Below are positions 48,957 to 56,581 of a DNA stretch of 64,000 bases, piece after piece (the stretch's first letter is position 1; each line of letters begins with the position of its first letter). Below the pieces are notes generated by a model. The model saw only the letters and a program-made list of their open reading frames with translations, was not told where the DNA came from and did not search any database. Source of the stretch: Microcoleus sp. FACHB-672 (lineage in GTDB: Bacteria > Cyanobacteriota > Cyanobacteriia > Cyanobacteriales > Oscillatoriaceae); NCBI RefSeq assembly GCF_014695725.1, contig NZ_JACJOU010000005.1, positions 1-64,000 on the forward strand, in the 5' to 3' direction. A program made the translations under genes and the position numbers.

Positions 48957-49766
48957 ATGAAACGAATAATCCCCGCAAGCGTCCTGCTTTTAGCGGCAAT
49001 CTGCTCAGCTTGTCAAGGAAGTGGCCAGACTAATTCCCTCAACCGGCTGCTGCAAACCAAGGAATGTCAGGGATGTGATTTAAGAGAAGCCAATCTAGTC
49101 GGTGCTCAACTCAAAGGAGCAAATTTAAGTCGTGCGGATCTGGGAAACGCCCAGCTAAACGGTGCTAATTTAGAAGGAACCCAGCTCAAAAGTGTTGATT
49201 TTTTCAGTGCGAATCTTCAGCAGGCAAATTTAGAAGGGGCGCTGCTGCTCAATGCTAATCTGATTCAGGCGAATCTCAGTGGTGCGAATCTTAAACAAGC
49301 GAATCTAGAGGATGCCAGCCTTCGATCAGCCAATCTCAATAGTGCAAATCTCAGTGGTGCTCAGTTAGGTTACACCAATCTCATCAGCGCTCAACTGAAT
49401 GCGGCTGATCTGAATAATGCGGCGTTAAGCCATTCAGATATGATTCAGGCGAATCTGACGGAAGCAGATCTGAAGGGGGCTAATCTGGTAGATGCTAACT
49501 TGAGCGGTGCTGACTTGACGGGTGCCAGTTTAGAGAATGCCTTTCTGGAAAATGCGAATCTCCGACGGGCAAATTTGGAGAAAGCCAACCTGAGTGGCAC
49601 TCAATTGCGCTATGCCAACTTGATTGAGGCGAATTTAACCGGCGCGAATTTGAGGGGTGCCGATCTGAGCAGTGCTAATCTCACCGGCGCGAATTTAGAG
49701 GGGGCGGATTTGACGGAGGCGACGTTAGCCGGTGCGATCTTGCCAGAGGAGACAGCACAACCATAA
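48957..49766 (+). CDS. Pentapeptide-repeat lipoprotein
   Basis: A 269-aa protein. The signal peptide ends in a lipobox-like AICSAC (Cys about 19), giving a lipid-anchored periplasmic protein. After LLQTKECQGCDLREANL come about 40 A(D/N)LxG pentapeptide repeats (residues about 40-262), predicted to form a right-handed quadrilateral beta-helix. The C-x2-C motif directly before the first repeat also occurs in the paralogue at 55574 (CQSCDLRGANL). Function unknown. The stop is about 180 bp before aspS. Confidence 0.87.
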   Translation: MKRIIPASVLLLAAICSACQGSGQTNSLNRLLQTKECQGCDLREANLVGAQLKGANLSRADLGNAQLNGANLEGTQLKSVDFFSANLQQANLEGALLLNANLIQANLSGANLKQANLEDASLRSANLNSANLSGAQLGYTNLISAQLNAADLNNAALSHSDMIQANLTEADLKGANLVDANLSGADLTGASLENAFLENANLRRANLEKANLSGTQLRYANLIEANLTGANLRGADLSSANLTGANLEGADLTEATLAGAILPEETAQP

Positions 49767-49949: not shown

Positions 49950-51737
49950 ATGCGTACCCACTATTGCGGCCAGCTCCGAAAAGAACACATTGGAGAAACA
50001 GTCACCCTCTGTGGATGGGTGGATCGTCGCCGCGATCATGGTGGCGTGATTTTCTTGGATTTGCGCGATCGCACCGGCATTGTGCAAATTGTTAGCGATC
50101 CCGTGCGGACTCCAGACTCCTACGCGCAAGCAGAGGCGCTGCGGAGTGAATACGTTGTCCAATTCACGGGTCGGGTGACGCCACGCCCCGAAGATTCTCT
50201 CAATCCCAAACTGGCAACCGGCGAGGTGGAAATCTACGCCGATAAAATTGAACTGCTCAATACGGTTCGCAAGCAGTTGCCTTTTCAAGTTTCCAGCGCT
50301 GATAACGAGTCGGTGCGAGAAGACTTGCGGCTGAAATATCGCTATTTGGATCTGCGCCGCGAACGCATGACGGAAAATCTCAAGCTGCGCCACGAAGTGG
50401 TTAAAGCGATCCGTCGTTATTTGGAAGACCGGCAAGGATTTATTGAAGTTGAGACGCCGGTGCTCACTCGCTCAACCCCAGAAGGAGCACGGGATTATCT
50501 GGTGCCGAGTCGCGTCAATGGCGGCGAGTGGTTTGCTTTGCCCCAGTCGCCGCAGCTATTCAAGCAATTGCTGATGGTGTCCGGGTTTGACCGCTACTAT
50601 CAAATCGCCCGGTGCTTTCGGGATGAAGATTTACGGGCAGACCGGCAGCCAGAATTCACTCAGCTAGACATGGAAATGAGCTTCATGTCTCAAGAAGAGA
50701 TTCTTCAGCTCAATGAGGAACTAACGACGCATATTTTTAAAACTGTTAAAGGGATTGAATTGCCTCGTCCTTTCCCGCGCCTCACTTACGCAGAAGCGAT
50801 GGATCGTTATGGCAGTGATAAGCCGGATACACGCTTCGATCTGGAATTAGTAGATGTTTCAGATTTGATGAAAGACTCCGGATTTAAGGTGTTTTCCGGG
50901 GCGATCGCATCGGGCGGGATTGTGAAAATTTTGCCTATTCCAGAGGGAAATGCGGCGATTTCTAATGTGCGGATTAAACCGGGCGGAGATTTGTTTAATG
51001 AAGCTTGCAGTGCCGGCGCGAAAGGTTTAGCCTATATCCGGGTGCGAGATGATGGCGAAATCGATACAATTGGCGCAATTAAAGATAATTTGAGCGAGGA
51101 ACAAAAGCAAGAATTGCTTAAGCGCACGGGTGCGAAACCCGGGCATTTACTGCTATTTGGTGCAGGGCCGGCTGATATTGTCAATAAAACCTTAGATCGC
51201 CTGCGTTTAGCAATCGCTCGTGAGTTGGGACTGATCCCTCCAGATAAAATTAATCTGCTTTGGGTAACAGATTTCCCGATGTTTGAGTGGAATGCTGACG
51301 AAAAGCGTTTAGAGGCATTACATCACCCCTTTACCGCACCGCATCCAGATGATATTGACGATCTCAAAACAGCACGAGCGCAAGCCTATGATTTGATCTT
51401 CAACGGGTATGAAATCGGCGGCGGTTCGCGGCGGATTTATCAACGGGAAGTTCAAGAAAGAGTGTTTGAAGCGATTGGTTTATCGCCGGAGGAAGCTTAC
51501 AGTAAGTTTGGCTTTTTGCTGGAGGCGTTTGAGTATGGAACGCCGCCGCATGGAGGCATCGCTTACGGTTTAGACCGGCTGGTGATGTTGCTTGCCGGCG
51601 AAGAGTCAATTCGGGATGTCATTGCATTTCCCAAGACGCAGCAAGCGCGTTGTTTGCTGACAAATGCACCGTCTGGAGTGGATGCAAAGCAGTTGAAAGA
51701 GTTGCACGTCGCTTCGACTTATAAGCCAAAGGCTTGA
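49950..51737 (+). CDS. aspS: Aspartyl-tRNA synthetase
   Basis: Class II synthetase charging tRNA-Asp, 595 aa, the usual bacterial length. An N-terminal OB-fold anticodon-binding domain ([20 protein letters not shown], about 17-36) is followed by catalytic motif 2 ([20 protein letters not shown], about 223-242), an inserted GAD domain (about 300-420) and motif 3 ([17 protein letters not shown], about 537-553). A bacterial-type enzyme with a full GAD domain may also be non-discriminating toward tRNA-Asn; this cannot be decided here. No strong Shine-Dalgarno. Confidence 0.97.
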
Positions 51738-51819
51738 GGGTTCGTAAAATTGTTAGAGTAATGGGTAATTGGTAATTTTCTATTACTGATTACTCATTTT
51801 TTATTAGCAGGAAGTTGCT

Positions 51820-52626
51820 ATGAGTCAAATCACCTCATCTGTGGAGCCGGTGAATTTTACACCTGAGCTGCCTACGAGTTTGCCAGATCACACTCAACTT
51901 CCCGACTCTGACGGTACTTTTGTGAAAAATCTTCAGGAGCATCCCCAAAGTATTCTGCTGACAGATTCGATCATGCCGGTGTTGCAGCAGTTACATCCAG
52001 ACGGTCAATATTGTATCGGGCAAGATAGCGGAATTTACTGGCGAATCACTGATCCACCGGAAAGAGGCGCTGAGGCACCGGATTGGTTTTATGTGCCGAA
52101 TGTGCCGCCGGTGTTGAATGGTGAAATGCGGCGTTCTTATGTGATTTGGCAAGAATATGTCGCGCCTTTAATTGTGCTGGAATTTGTTTCTGGAAATGGC
52201 GAAGAAGAACGAGATACAACGCCTGTTACGGGTAAGTTTTGGGTTTACGAACAGGCAATTCGTGTTCCTTTTTACGCCATTTATGAAGTAAAAAAAGCAC
52301 AGGTTCAAGTGTATCAACTTGTTGCCGGTCACTATGAGTTAATATCTCCTAATGAGCGCGGGCATTATGCAATTCCCCCGTTGGGTGTGGAGTTAGGAAT
52401 TTGGCAAGGACAATATCAAAATGCAACGCTGCCGTGGCTGCGCTGGTGGGATGCACAAGGTAATTTATTACTAACAGGAGAAGAACGAGCGGAAGTTGAG
52501 CGACAGGAGAAGGAGTTGGCTCAACAACAGGCTGAAACTGAACGGCAGCGTGCTGATACTGAGCAGCAACGTGCTGAGCGGTTAGCTGAGCAGTTGAGGG
52601 CGTTGGGGGTTGAGCCTCAAGCGTAG
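51820..52626 (+). CDS. Uma2-family (DUF820) PD-(D/E)XK nuclease-like protein
   Basis: A 268-aa protein. The Uma2 fold shows the catalytic pattern APDWFYVP (Asp about 87), LIVLEFVSGNG (Glu about 125) and GKFWVYEQAI. The C-terminal 50 residues form a Glu/Gln/Arg-rich coiled coil (ERQRADTEQQRAERLAEQLR). The family is extremely abundant in cyanobacteria; its biological role is not established. The ATG is preceded by AGGAAG. Confidence 0.87.
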   Translation: MSQITSSVEPVNFTPELPTSLPDHTQLPDSDGTFVKNLQEHPQSILLTDSIMPVLQQLHPDGQYCIGQDSGIYWRITDPPERGAEAPDWFYVPNVPPVLNGEMRRSYVIWQEYVAPLIVLEFVSGNGEEERDTTPVTGKFWVYEQAIRVPFYAIYEVKKAQVQVYQLVAGHYELISPNERGHYAIPPLGVELGIWQGQYQNATLPWLRWWDAQGNLLLTGEERAEVERQEKELAQQQAETERQRADTEQQRAERLAEQLRALGVEPQA

Positions 52627-52755
52627 GCATGAGAAAAGAGGGAGAGCCGGCGCAATTGAGCATCAAGTTTAAGCATCTGATAACTGTTTAATTTGCGCCA
52701 TGCTTGCTCTAAATCTTTGGGGTGCTATTAGATTCGCAAATTAACAAACTGGACG

Positions 52756-53250
52756 TTAACTATCCCGAATTGAAGAAGCGTGTGCCAAATTTTCTGCTGC
52801 TTTTTTCATCACTTCAATATCTGCCGGCAACCAAACACGAGTATCGCGGCAGTGATGGGCAATCAACAAACCCCAGAGTCCTTTGAAATTGAGCACCGGC
52901 ACGGCTAAATTTGCTCGAACCTGGATACTGCGGAGAAAGTCTCTATGGCAAGGGTGGATTGGCTCTAATTCAATATCTGGAATGGCTCGCACTCGTCCCG
53001 CTTCATATAAAGCCGCATATTCGCCATTAAAACAATCATCCGCTCCCGTCATTCCAAACACAGATAATTGCGGAGAACTCAAAGACTCGAAGGTAACTTG
53101 TCCTCTCCACTGGAGGTAAAAGTAATATAAAATCACCCGATCAACATCTAAAATTTCTCTCAAGTCATTTGTGGTTTCTTGAACTGTCTTATCCTGAGTC
53201 AGTGTTTTAGAAAGACGGTCGGTTATTTTTCGTAAACTGGGATCGGCCAT
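52756..53250 (-). CDS. Stand-alone GAF protein with DXCF cyanobacteriochrome cysteines
   Basis: A 164-aa single GAF domain with no output domain. It carries D71-D72-C73-F74, a D-x-C-F motif, and C101-H102, the canonical bilin cysteine with its His. The cysteines are 28 residues apart, the spacing I recall in TePixJ. GRVRAIPDIEL, QVRANLAVPVL and LWGLLIAHHC are also typical cyanobacteriochrome sequences. This predicts a covalently bound phycocyanobilin or phycoviolobilin and blue/green-type photochemistry, with signalling through a partner. Caution: some GAF domains keep these cysteines without binding bilin. It converges with the Uma2 gene. Start ATG at 53250. Confidence 0.82.
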   Translation of the reverse strand: MADPSLRKITDRLSKTLTQDKTVQETTNDLREILDVDRVILYYFYLQWRGQVTFESLSSPQLSVFGMTGADDCFNGEYAALYEAGRVRAIPDIELEPIHPCHRDFLRSIQVRANLAVPVLNFKGLWGLLIAHHCRDTRVWLPADIEVMKKAAENLAHASSIRDS

Positions 53251-53780
53251 ACTGTCTAGTTTAAGAATTCTTTTAGATTGGTGCTTGGAACTGTATTTTT
53301 TAATAGTTGAGTTCGTTTATTGTAAGGCACTCATTTTTCATGTTTTTATTTTACAACAAAGATAATCTTTTAAGGAAATTTTATTTGATTAATTTTATAA
53401 ATTTTATTTTATAGCATCAATCAATTTTTTATTGATTTCAATGGAAAACATTGGTAATTGCAATTTAATCATAAATTAAAAGTGAGTTTTTATAACTTTA
53501 AGATTTTTCATGAAAGCCGGCTCCTTCACAAATGCTTGCGAGTGCCTGTCCTTGGATTTCGCGCATTTTCCGGCCAAGCTCCTATTGAGCCGGTGAAAAC
53601 AAGATCGCTCAGACCGGCAGCTTCAGAGGAAAGCAAGCTATACAATTGCTAACAGCAGGTGTAGAGACGTTGTTTGCAACGTCTCTACACCTGCTATGTT
53701 GTGTTTGCTGCTGTACGAACGCACCCTGGAAAAGTCGCAAACAAGGGAATTGAGAAGTTTAAAATTTGAATTGTGAATGT
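53251..53780. other. AT-rich intergenic with a perfect palindromic hairpin
   Basis: AT-rich to about 53510, then a GC-richer half without a convincing ORF. The hairpin at 53654-53695 is listed separately. Confidence 0.45.
53654..53695. repeat. Perfect 19-bp palindromic hairpin (dispersed repeat type)
   Basis: AGCAGGTGTAGAGACGTTG (53654-53672), loop TTTG, and its exact complement (53677-53695). The core GTAGAGACG recurs at about 56640. The word AGAGACGTTGCAACGTCTCT is a familiar intergenic repeat in filamentous cyanobacteria. Probably a REP/MITE-like element. Confidence 0.75.
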
Positions 53781-54881
53781 TTAATTTTCCAATCGGCGTC
53801 GTAAGTTAGCCATTTGTTGCCGAGCCTTAAGGTGATTAGGAGTAATTCTTAATGCTCGGTCATAAGAAGCAAGGGCATCTTCATATCGGCCCAACTGCTC
53901 TAGGGCTAACCCGCGATTGTACCAAGCACTCGCAGGGCCGGTATCGCTTCCCCATTGACCCTTGCTTTGCAGCGCTCGCTCATAAGCGTTAATCGCGTTT
54001 TCATACTGTCCCAACTGCAAAAGCGCGGTAGCCCGGTTATACCAAGCCAGGGCAAATTCAGGATTAACGGTGGTCGCTTTGTCAAATGCCGCAATCGCTT
54101 CTTCTTTACGAGCCAACTTCCACAATACTGAACCTTTGTAACTCCAAGCAGACTCAAGGCTTTCGTTGCCCCAATCCCGATTAAGTTCAATTGCCTTATC
54201 AAACGCCTGATTGGCTTCTTCGTTGCGATCAAGCTGCTTGAGCACCATTGCCCGTTCAAACCAACTGAGAGAGTAAGCAGATTTGAGGTCAATTGCCTGC
54301 TGCAAAACCGCAAGCGCATCGTCATACCGGCCTAATTCTCCAAGTACAACTCCTTTGCCGGTTAAAGCAGCGGCTGAGTCCGGTCTAAGGCTGATTGCTC
54401 GATCGTAAGCGGTGAGCGCTTCTTCATACTGTTTTTTGCTTAGCAGGAACTGCCCTCGGTTTAGCCAGTAATTAATATCTCCAGATTCAGTGGGGGCGGG
54501 TTGCTCACCTGATGTCGGTGCCGGCTGGGGTGATTGAACGGGTTGCTCACCTGATGCCGGTGCCGGCTGCGGCGATTGAACGGGTTGCTCACCTGATGCT
54601 GGTGCCGGCTGGGGTGATTGAACGGGTTGCTCACCTGATGTCGGTGCCGGCTGGGGTGATTGAACGGGTTGCTCACCTGATGCTGGTGTCGGCTGCGGGG
54701 ACTGGGCGGGCTGTCCACCTGATGTTGGTGTCGGCTGGGGCGATTGGGCGGGTTGCTCACCTGATGTCGGTGTCGGCTGGGGCGATTGGGCTAGCCGAGC
54801 GCTGACAGCGAAAACCGGCACTTGAACCCATAAACTGACAGCAGCGGTCGTGATGCAGATGCATTGAAGGGTGCGCTTCAT
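53781..54881 (-). CDS. Exported TPR protein with Pro-rich tandem repeats
   Basis: A 366-aa protein. The signal peptide is residues 1-26 (cleavage near VFA-VSA). Seven exact-length 14-residue units (QSPQPTPTSGEQPA type, about 31-128) form an extended Pro/Gln/Ser linker. About six TPR units follow (about 140-360; LNRGQFLLSKKQYEEALTAY, DRAISLRPDS, FDKAIELNRDW, NRGLALEQLGRYEDALASY), a protein-protein interaction scaffold, here periplasmic. Divergent from nothing nearby; monocistronic. No catalytic motif. Confidence 0.87.
   Translation of the reverse strand: MKRTLQCICITTAAVSLWVQVPVFAVSARLAQSPQPTPTSGEQPAQSPQPTPTSGGQPAQSPQPTPASGEQPVQSPQPAPTSGEQPVQSPQPAPASGEQPVQSPQPAPASGEQPVQSPQPAPTSGEQPAPTESGDINYWLNRGQFLLSKKQYEEALTAYDRAISLRPDSAAALTGKGVVLGELGRYDDALAVLQQAIDLKSAYSLSWFERAMVLKQLDRNEEANQAFDKAIELNRDWGNESLESAWSYKGSVLWKLARKEEAIAAFDKATTVNPEFALAWYNRATALLQLGQYENAINAYERALQSKGQWGSDTGPASAWYNRGLALEQLGRYEDALASYDRALRITPNHLKARQQMANLRRRLEN
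54498..54791 (-). repeat. Seven 42-bp tandem repeats inside the TPR gene
   Basis: Seven units of 42 bp, each containing GGTTGCTCACCTGATG-type sequence with small variations. They keep the frame. The complementary strand is also open here only because of the repeat composition. Confidence 0.88.
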
Positions 54882-55573: not shown

Positions 55574-56581
55574 TTAGCATCGGTGTTTTTTGCGATCGGG
55601 CAAGGTTGCACTGCACAGCTCGGTATTTGTCAGTATGGCGTCCTTAATGTTAGCGCCTTCCAAGTTTGCACGAACCAGTTTAGCCCCTGCTAGGTTGGCT
55701 TGAACCAGATTCGTTCCCTTGAGATCAGCTTCCTCTAAAGAGGCACCCTCTAAGTCAGACTGGGATAAATCCGCCCCTTGAAGGCTAGCGCGAGTCAGAT
55801 CAGCGCCTCGAAGGCTGGTGCGGCTTAAGTTTGTTCCTCTAAGGTTGGCTTCTCGAAGGGAAGCATTTCTGAGGTTAGCGCTACTGAGGTTGGCGCTACT
55901 CAGGTCTGCTTCTCGGAGGTTGGCTCCCACTAACTCGGCACTCACCATGTAGGCACTTGCTAGGTTCGCGCCTCGGAGGTTGGTATTTTCTAGATAAATA
56001 TTTCTTAAATCAGTATTACTGAGATCCACTCCCGCTAAGTCAGAAGCCGATAGTTGAGCGAGTAGCAGGTTGGCTCCGGTGAGGTTAGCACGGGTGAGAT
56101 CAGAGCCGGTGAGGTCTGCTCCATTGAGGTCTGCTCCACGCATATCAGTATTCACCAAGCTGGCACCATTCAAGTTAGTGCCGGTGAGGTTGGCGCTTCT
56201 GAGATCCGCACCGACCAAGTCAGCCTGTCGCAGATCGGAACCTGTGAGATCCGCTCCACGCAAGTCAACACCGGCTAGGTTTGCTCCCACTAAGTAGCTT
56301 CCTCGCAGGTTGGCTCCTCTGAGATCGCAAGATTGACAAGTGTTGGTGTTGAGCAATTGGTTAACGCCTGGGTAACTTGTGGCGTGCACCGCTGCGGCTA
56401 ACCATACAGACGCTAATAGGGTGGCGATTCCCATTAAGGCCGGTGTCAAAAACCTTGGCTTTGACAGCCAAGCCTTGAACCAACGTCTAGTAGGGGCATT
56501 GCTACGTGTAGACCCAGACAGGGAGCGCACTACAGGACTGAGCATTTTAGGTTTAAGCGTGTTTTTCCCAAGTTGCGGCAA
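55574..56581 (-). CDS. Pentapeptide-repeat protein with membrane segment
   Basis: A 335-aa protein. A basic N-terminal 40 residues is followed by a hydrophobic helix (LMGIATLLASVWLAAAVHA, about 49-67), serving as a signal anchor or signal peptide. After LLNTNTCQSCDLRGANL come about 50 A(D/N)LxG repeats (residues about 86-325), ending in TELCSATLPDRKKHRC. Clearly related to the lipoprotein at 48957, including the C-x2-C motif, but with a different export signal. Function unknown; beta-helix fold predicted. Confidence 0.87.
   Translation of the reverse strand: MPQLGKNTLKPKMLSPVVRSLSGSTRSNAPTRRWFKAWLSKPRFLTPALMGIATLLASVWLAAAVHATSYPGVNQLLNTNTCQSCDLRGANLRGSYLVGANLAGVDLRGADLTGSDLRQADLVGADLRSANLTGTNLNGASLVNTDMRGADLNGADLTGSDLTRANLTGANLLLAQLSASDLAGVDLSNTDLRNIYLENTNLRGANLASAYMVSAELVGANLREADLSSANLSSANLRNASLREANLRGTNLSRTSLRGADLTRASLQGADLSQSDLEGASLEEADLKGTNLVQANLAGAKLVRANLEGANIKDAILTNTELCSATLPDRKKHRC

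What the first reader, a model, noticed from the sequence alone, without database searches (positions are those of the whole stretch)
52756..53250. Stand-alone 164-aa GAF protein with both cysteines of a DXCF cyanobacteriochrome
Seen: D71-D72-C73-F74 and C101-H102, 28 residues apart, plus GRVRAIPDIEL and QVRANLAVPVL. Known: DXCF-type cyanobacteriochromes such as TePixJ use exactly this pair of cysteines to bind bilin. They are usually domains of large kinases or chemoreceptors. Inference: this is a free-standing minimal photoreceptor that must signal by binding another protein.
Basis: partly seen in the sequence, partly recalled or inferred. Interest (0 to 1): 0.68.

Follow-up and report, generated by a model that had tools for sequence, protein, structure and literature searches.

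The report
Stand-alone two-cysteine cyanobacteriochrome light sensor
This small cyanobacterial protein is very probably a light-switchable bilin photoreceptor reduced to a single sensory domain; it belongs to a widespread conserved family with one relative already in the literature, and what it signals to is still unknown.

Summary
In detail: a 164-aa GAF protein on the minus strand at 52756-53250, with DDCF at residues 71-74 and CH at 101-102. It is not a stray fragment. Of 386 genomes sampled across the phylum, 57 hold a full-length match in open frames of 165-213 aa. Both cysteines and His102 are kept in 83 of 83 loci. In a tree with 22 other GAFs of the same genome as control, it falls among cyanobacteriochromes (99/99) beside multidomain DXCF-type domains (97/88), and the stand-alone rows form one clade (100/100). 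The model matches the TePixJ GAF (Z 21.0, rmsd 2.4, 148 residues). dN/dS is about 0.1. No fusion was seen in 142 order-wide matches, and no neighbour gene recurs across lineages. The kind is known: Anabaena Alr3356, beside ndhH, is described as a cyanobacteriochrome and its gene is a direct FurA target (PMC4788461); the ndhH-GAF order recurs here in its presumed relatives. Bilin binding, colours and partner are inferred. Verdict: new member of a known, little-studied group.

The parts
52756..53250 (-). Gene for the 164-aa stand-alone DXCF cyanobacteriochrome GAF protein (ATG at 53250, stop codon included)
53029..53040 (-). DXCF motif, residues D71-D72-C73-F74; C73 is the presumed second bilin cysteine
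   Evidence: C73 in 83 of 83 loci; aligns with C494 of TePixJ
52945..52950 (-). C101-H102, presumed canonical bilin-attachment cysteine and neighbouring histidine
   Evidence: both in 83 of 83 loci; aligns with C522-H523 of TePixJ
53251..53520 (-). A+T-rich upstream stretch, presumed to hold the promoter; one sigma-70-like match (53420-53392), no better than chance
   Evidence: sequence; one search found 4 promoter-like sites in 52400-54000 against a mean of 2.8 (sd 1.7) in shuffles

Best explanation
A stand-alone DXCF cyanobacteriochrome. The GAF domain takes up phycocyanobilin made by the cell's bilin reductase and attaches it through C101; the second cysteine C73 reversibly bonds to C10 of the bilin. 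The dark state would absorb blue light and the lit state a longer wavelength, typically green, with the bilin possibly isomerised to phycoviolobilin. With no output domain attached, the lit/dark change of its surface is read by a separate protein that it binds and releases. Shown here: gene, predicted fold, motifs, conservation, clade, absence of fusion in the matches examined. Inferred from the family: bilin attachment, photocycle, colours. Inferred only: action in trans on an unidentified partner.
For: Cys73, Cys101 and His102 in 83 of 83 loci, Asn114 in 80, Asp71 in 71; the 60 best of 97 solved relatives shown are cyanobacteriochromes, phytochromes or their engineered derivatives; gapless alignment with TePixJ; model pLDDT 89.9, pTM 0.87, Z 21.0 to TePixJ 4glq; one clade 100/100 among cyanobacteriochromes; one match per genome at E 3.4e-49 or better in 57 of 386 genomes; 140 of 291 genomes of the order have it; dN 0.024, dS 0.246; a bilin reductase (Fe_bilin_red, E 8.4e-76) in the same genome; no fusion seen; Anabaena Alr3356 named a cyanobacteriochrome (PMC4788461).
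Against: No spectrum, bilin adduct or partner was observed. TePixJ's pocket residue Q526 is F105 here (F in 80 of 83; but also F in 22 of 56 other cyanobacteriochrome rows). The Asp of DXCF is replaced in 12 of 83 members by alignment, 13 by direct reading, so the photocycle may differ within the family. No partner gene is conserved next to it across lineages.
Confidence: 0.8

Rival explanations
1. A bilin-binding GAF that is not a signalling switch: it stores, shields, isomerises (phycocyanobilin to phycoviolobilin) or delivers bilin, so no regulatory partner is needed.
For: No output domain and no neighbour conserved across lineages. The Anabaena gene rises when FurA is turned off, in the same table as several detoxification genes and pcyA; pcyA rose 2.01-fold but was not bound by FurA (PMC4788461).
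Against: Conservation of the second cysteine in 83 of 83 suggests that the reversible linkage matters; a permanent canonical linkage does not suit a carrier.
Confidence: 0.12
2. A light-dependent regulator tied to NDH-1 or its electron supply: it acts on the product of ndhH or on the neighbouring MidA/NDUFAF7-like methyltransferase.
For: In family code f6 (taken to be Nostocaceae) the gene lies 312-552 bp from ndhH in 12 of 30 genomes that hold it, and 733 bp in one more (Pfam PF00346). The Methyltransf_28 (PF02636) gene follows on the same strand within 60 bp in 8 of 78 loci. In 6 of 8 f6 genomes without the GAF in which both genes were found, ndhH and midA are far apart or on different contigs, so within f6 their closeness goes largely with the GAF. 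In family code f10 (3 loci) the GAF lies by a CpcD-type ferredoxin-NADP reductase gene, and in L149 ndhF lies beyond it.
Against: ndhH and midA are neighbours without it in the window's own genome (223 bp apart on contig C23, the GAF gene being on C5) and in G233, which lacks it (60 bp); also 796 bp apart in G101, which lacks it, and 1046 bp in G305, where it lies elsewhere. So the pair looks older. Among 36 representative loci read, outside f6 and f10, no such neighbourhood was noticed.
Confidence: 0.05
3. A decayed fragment of a multidomain cyanobacteriochrome (pseudogene), kept by chance.
For: Many GAFs in the same genome (141 matches), some of them cyanobacteriochrome-like.
Against: Orthologues of the same length in 15 family codes, one clade, dN/dS about 0.1.
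Confidence: 0.01
4. A GAF that binds a ligand other than a bilin.
For: GAF domains are diverse; nothing here measures a ligand.
Against: Both bilin cysteines and the His invariant, separation from 22 other GAFs of the same genome (99/99), closest solved structures bilin-binding.
Confidence: 0.02

Closest known systems
Alr3356 of Anabaena/Nostoc sp. PCC 7120
   Same: Described as a cyanobacteriochrome with a chromophore-binding GAF domain (PMC4788461, passages); its locus tag follows alr3355, which is ndhH (PMC12923008 and PMC8147232, passages); relatives of the window gene have ndhH among their near neighbours in 14 of 83 loci, among them the named Atlanticothrix silvestris (L022).
   Different: Alr3356's own sequence and length could not be fetched, so orthology and its stand-alone state rest on gene order and description. 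Its gene is a FurA target; whether the window gene is was not tested. The window gene does not lie by ndhH.
TePixJ GAF domain (DXCF cyanobacteriochrome, PDB 4glq, 3vv4, 6p58)
   Same: Both cysteines at the same spacing, adjacent His, Asp of DXCF, Asn535 equivalent, same fold.
   Different: TePixJ is annotated as a methyl-accepting chemotaxis protein; Q526 is F105 here; about 30% identity.
Multidomain GAFs with a DDCFSGEYAHLY-type motif (for example L154, L169, L172, L178)
   Same: In the sister group of 15 rows in the trees; same motif style.
   Different: These four sit in frames of 596-938 aa, at 42-45% identity, and lack Y43 and Y45.
miRFP670nano (engineered from a cyanobacteriochrome GAF)
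   Same: Single free GAF of similar size, Z 21.9.
   Different: Man-made excision without the DXCF cysteine (alignment); here the single domain is a natural gene.

Membership tests
DXCF cyanobacteriochromes | GAF domain of the bilin-binding kind | tested here: met
   Pfam GAF E 5.2e-19; Z 21.0 to TePixJ 4glq
DXCF cyanobacteriochromes | Canonical cysteine followed by His | tested here: met
   C101-H102, 83 of 83
DXCF cyanobacteriochromes | Second cysteine in a DXCF motif | tested here: met
   D71-D72-C73-F74 in the window protein; C73 and F74 in 83 of 83, D71 in 71 of 83 loci
DXCF cyanobacteriochromes | Placement among cyanobacteriochrome GAFs in a tree | tested here: met
   99/99 split of 80 cyanobacteriochrome-like rows from 22 other GAFs of the own genome; 97/88 with 15 multidomain rows. 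Bootstrap not fully settled; several control rows have long branches
DXCF cyanobacteriochromes | Covalent phycocyanobilin or phycoviolobilin | not testable with these tools
   needs protein
DXCF cyanobacteriochromes | Reversible photocycle with a blue-absorbing dark state | not testable with these tools
   needs spectroscopy
Alr3356-type stand-alone cyanobacteriochromes | No other domain in the reading frame (that Alr3356 itself is stand-alone is recalled, not seen) | tested here: met
   window protein 164 aa; relatives in open frames of 165-213 aa, 57 of 57
Alr3356-type stand-alone cyanobacteriochromes | Sequence orthology to Alr3356 itself | tested here: inconclusive
   Alr3356 sequence not held; argument from gene order and locus tags only
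Phytochromes (PAS-GAF-PHY or GAF-PHY) | PHY domain after the GAF | tested here: not met
   only a GAF in Pfam; NCBIfam BphP 31.6 bits against a cut-off of 1040

The most novel reading that the evidence does not exclude
This is the type of a phylum-wide family of diffusible light switches: a cyanobacteriochrome permanently freed from any kinase or receptor, with family-specific conserved residues (Y43, Y45, the stretch ending in G69 before DXCF, A79) as a docking face for one partner protein encoded elsewhere, and wired to iron or redox state through FurA. The partner would be a new kind of light-signalling output.
Probability: 0.35. Interest if true: 0.62.

Novelty: new member of a known kind. 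Interest (0 to 1): 0.36.

Why it matters
Studied cyanobacteriochromes usually carry their output in the same chain (recalled knowledge), so how one without output signals is open. The family is found in 140 of 291 genomes of the window's order, with no fused output seen, which makes the partner question directly testable by pull-down in light and dark. Some genomes with few GAFs like it still keep it: G103, G155 and G296 had 8, 6 and 5 first-look candidates (27 and 22 for G103 and G155 in the looser), which hints at a basic role. A natural 164-aa two-cysteine switch may also be a handy optogenetic part.

Tried and rejected
Partner by operon: rejected as a general answer. Of 78 loci with a gene of 100 aa or more on both flanks, 3 have a same-strand one within 60 bp upstream and 11 downstream, 8 of these 11 being the Methyltransf_28 gene in f6 or Atlanticothrix; in 42 the downstream gene is on the other strand. 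Partner by fusion: none seen in 142 order-wide matches; two long frames (G432, 341 aa; G443, 260 aa) looked like fusions, but their extra part is unlike any protein I know and runs out of repeats resembling a CRISPR-like array (repeats seen around G432 only; the CRISPR label is by eye). NDH-1 link: tested, mixed result, told under rivals. My notebook entry calls a neighbour in f10 (cluster c807) a histidine kinase; its sequence reads as a MurD-like enzyme by eye, so that note is wrong. Viral copies: 17 pattern hits, 0 relatives in viral contigs. Structured RNA in 51700-54000: none at Rfam's gathering scores. Other short GAF frames of the own genome (C2, 155 aa; C19, 188 aa) lack the DXCF and CH motifs on reading and fall outside the cyanobacteriochromes. 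Not tested: a FurA box upstream of the window gene; oligomer state; surface exposure of the family-specific residues.

Literature: searches for stand-alone or GAF-only cyanobacteriochromes (listings only) showed no paper on this family; alr3356 occurs in one held paper; other Nostoc locus tags gave none. The library lacks most subscription journals. Passages of PMC9953108, PMC10151467 and PMC6696110 held nothing on stand-alone natural cyanobacteriochromes. Ma et al. 2012 (FEBS J), cited in PMC4788461, was not held under the DOI that I tried from memory; its title words occur in five held papers. That it measured DXCF GAF domains of Nostoc 7120, perhaps Alr3356 among them, is recalled, not seen.

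Rows dropped: 83 stand-alone rows thinned to 59 for the tree and to 20; L168 (same place as L065) and L081 left out of both; L076, L078, L079, L082 left out of the 56-row side of the conservation count (which includes 4 PDB rows); 40 of the multidomain matches listed were fetched, the rest not; 20 control GAFs were picked from the 141 among those without a match, plus L151 and L152. The 142 rows and 140 genomes were counted by hand down to E 1.8e-57.

Full report
The gene. Minus strand 53250 to 52756 encodes 164 aa from ATG to stop. Pfam sees one GAF domain, residues 21-158, and nothing else; NCBIfam gives only a bacteriophytochrome match far below its cut-off. Neighbours are a Uma2-type gene on the other strand, 129 bp away downstream, and a TPR gene upstream on the same strand, 530 bp away. 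The same order (TPR, GAF, Uma2-type, aspartyl-tRNA synthetase by eye) is kept in a same-genus genome.

Conserved family. In 386 genomes drawn across the phylum, 57 hold a full-length match (E 3.4e-49 or better, 49-64% identity, own genome 100%), one each at that level, in open frames of 165-213 aa and 15 family codes. The next matches listed are 46% identical or less and lie in frames of 383-2,216 aa. With the family profile, 140 of 291 genomes of the window's order have 142 matches at E 1.8e-57 or better; 140 of the 142 lie in frames of 163-214 aa, and the two longer frames are read-through rather than fusions. Two genomes (G435, G446) carry a second, more divergent copy with both cysteines. 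Named records include Trichocoleus, Symploca, Okeania, Hydrocoleum, Xenococcus, Pleurocapsa, Nodosilinea, Leptolyngbya and Microcoleus vaginatus. Against M. vaginatus dN is 0.024 and dS 0.246.

Bilin residues. In 83 loci (26 plus 57, one contig twice) C73, F74, C101 and H102 are in 83, N114 in 80, D71 in 71. Nine of the 13 members read without the Asp belong to one genus code, g10 of family f6, and keep the Cys. The alignment with TePixJ is gapless across the region. By TePixJ numbering (PMC6955287, passages), C494, C522, H523, D492 and N535 correspond to C73, C101, H102, D71 and N114, and Q526 to F105. Positions conserved here but much less in other cyanobacteriochrome rows include Y43 (80 of 83), Y45 (82 of 83), G69 (83 of 83; 8 of 56 elsewhere) and A79 (83 of 83; 23 of 56 elsewhere). 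The own genome has one ferredoxin-dependent bilin reductase match.

Placement. A 119-row tree (59 stand-alone, 56 multidomain, 4 from the PDB) puts the stand-alone rows on one side of a branch (100/100, length 0.79), next to 15 multidomain rows (98/90), 10 of which have a strict D-X-C-F and 5 not. That tree held no clear non-bilin GAFs, so a second one was made with 22 other GAFs of the own genome as control: the 80 cyanobacteriochrome-like rows split off at 99/99, the stand-alone rows plus the same 15 at 97/88, and the 20 stand-alone rows at 100/100. In both the bootstrap had not fully settled, the root is not inferred, and in the second several control rows have long branches that the program warns about.

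Structure. AlphaFold2 with 27 sequences gives pLDDT 89.9 and pTM 0.87. The 50 Foldseek rows shown (414 at E 0.001 or better) are cyanobacteriochromes, phytochromes or engineered derivatives. VIA-align gives Z 21.0 (rmsd 2.4, 148 residues) to TePixJ 4glq and 22.0 (rmsd 1.9, 145 residues) to miRFP670nano3. The chain ends shortly after its last long helix (142-156), so nothing leads on to an output.

Neighbourhood. Within eight genes on either side, the commonest neighbours in 83 loci are a Methyltransf_28 (MidA-like) gene in 18, an NAD_binding_2 gene in 17, ndhH in 14, another in 13 and a GatD-like amidotransferase in 9, all in loci of family code f6 or the named Atlanticothrix; smaller recurrent sets belong, among others, to Okeania and its kin or to family code f7. 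That f6 is Nostocaceae is my inference from Atlanticothrix nesting among its rows and from the Anabaena gene order. That MidA's eukaryotic homologue modifies the NdhH homologue is recalled. The ndhH-midA pair stands without the GAF in the window's own genome and in G233, but in 6 of 8 f6 genomes without the GAF the two genes are apart. So the GAF most simply came to lie inside an older pair, yet a functional tie within f6 is not excluded. In family code f10 the GAF lies by a ferredoxin-NADP reductase gene. The other loci read showed no neighbour shared across lineages.

Literature. PMC4788461 (listing, passages, part 1 of section 7) reports Anabaena alr3356, 'similar to phytochrome', up 3.94-fold when furA is turned off and bound by FurA in vitro; it calls Alr3356 a cyanobacteriochrome. 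alr3355 is ndhH (PMC12923008, PMC8147232; passages). PMC11284453 (passages and outline) gives the standard DXCF chemistry: typical DXCF domains bind phycoviolobilin and switch between blue and green.

Conclusion. By sequence, predicted fold and phylogeny this is an authentic stand-alone DXCF cyanobacteriochrome; its photochemistry is expected but unmeasured, and its partner is unknown. The group itself is not new.

Noticed in passing
window 53654-53695: Perfect 19-bp inverted repeat with a 4-base loop between the TPR gene and the GAF gene; its 28-base core occurs exactly only here in the own genome.
   Followed up: partly
window 54497-54788: Seven tandem copies of a 42-bp unit coding a Pro/Ser-rich repeat near the start of the TPR protein 53781-54881; that protein is 366 aa here and 352 aa in the same-genus locus L205.
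   Followed up: partly
window 48957-49766 and 55574-56581: Two pentapeptide-repeat proteins on either side of the aspS/GAF stretch.
   Followed up: no
own genome, whole: 141 GAF matches at E 0.001 or better in a 6.4-Mb genome; 36 matches to this protein, some of them two pieces of one domain.
   Followed up: partly
L105, L111, L118, L122, L124, L128, L129, L138, L139 (genus code g10): Stand-alone orthologues in which the Asp of DXCF is Ser (Arg in L111) while the Cys is kept; they may have a shifted photocycle.
   Followed up: no
L207 and L208: Second, divergent stand-alone copies lacking the YYFY..W stretch but with both cysteines.
   Followed up: no
own genome C23:56815-59394: ndhH followed by a Methyltransf_28 (MidA/NDUFAF7-like) gene, 223 bp apart, as in G233: a possible complex I assembly pair.
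   Followed up: partly
L011: Record titled Candidatus Gracilibacteria but carrying this cyanobacterial gene, nested among cyanobacterial rows in the tree: probably a misassigned contig of a metagenome bin.
   Followed up: no
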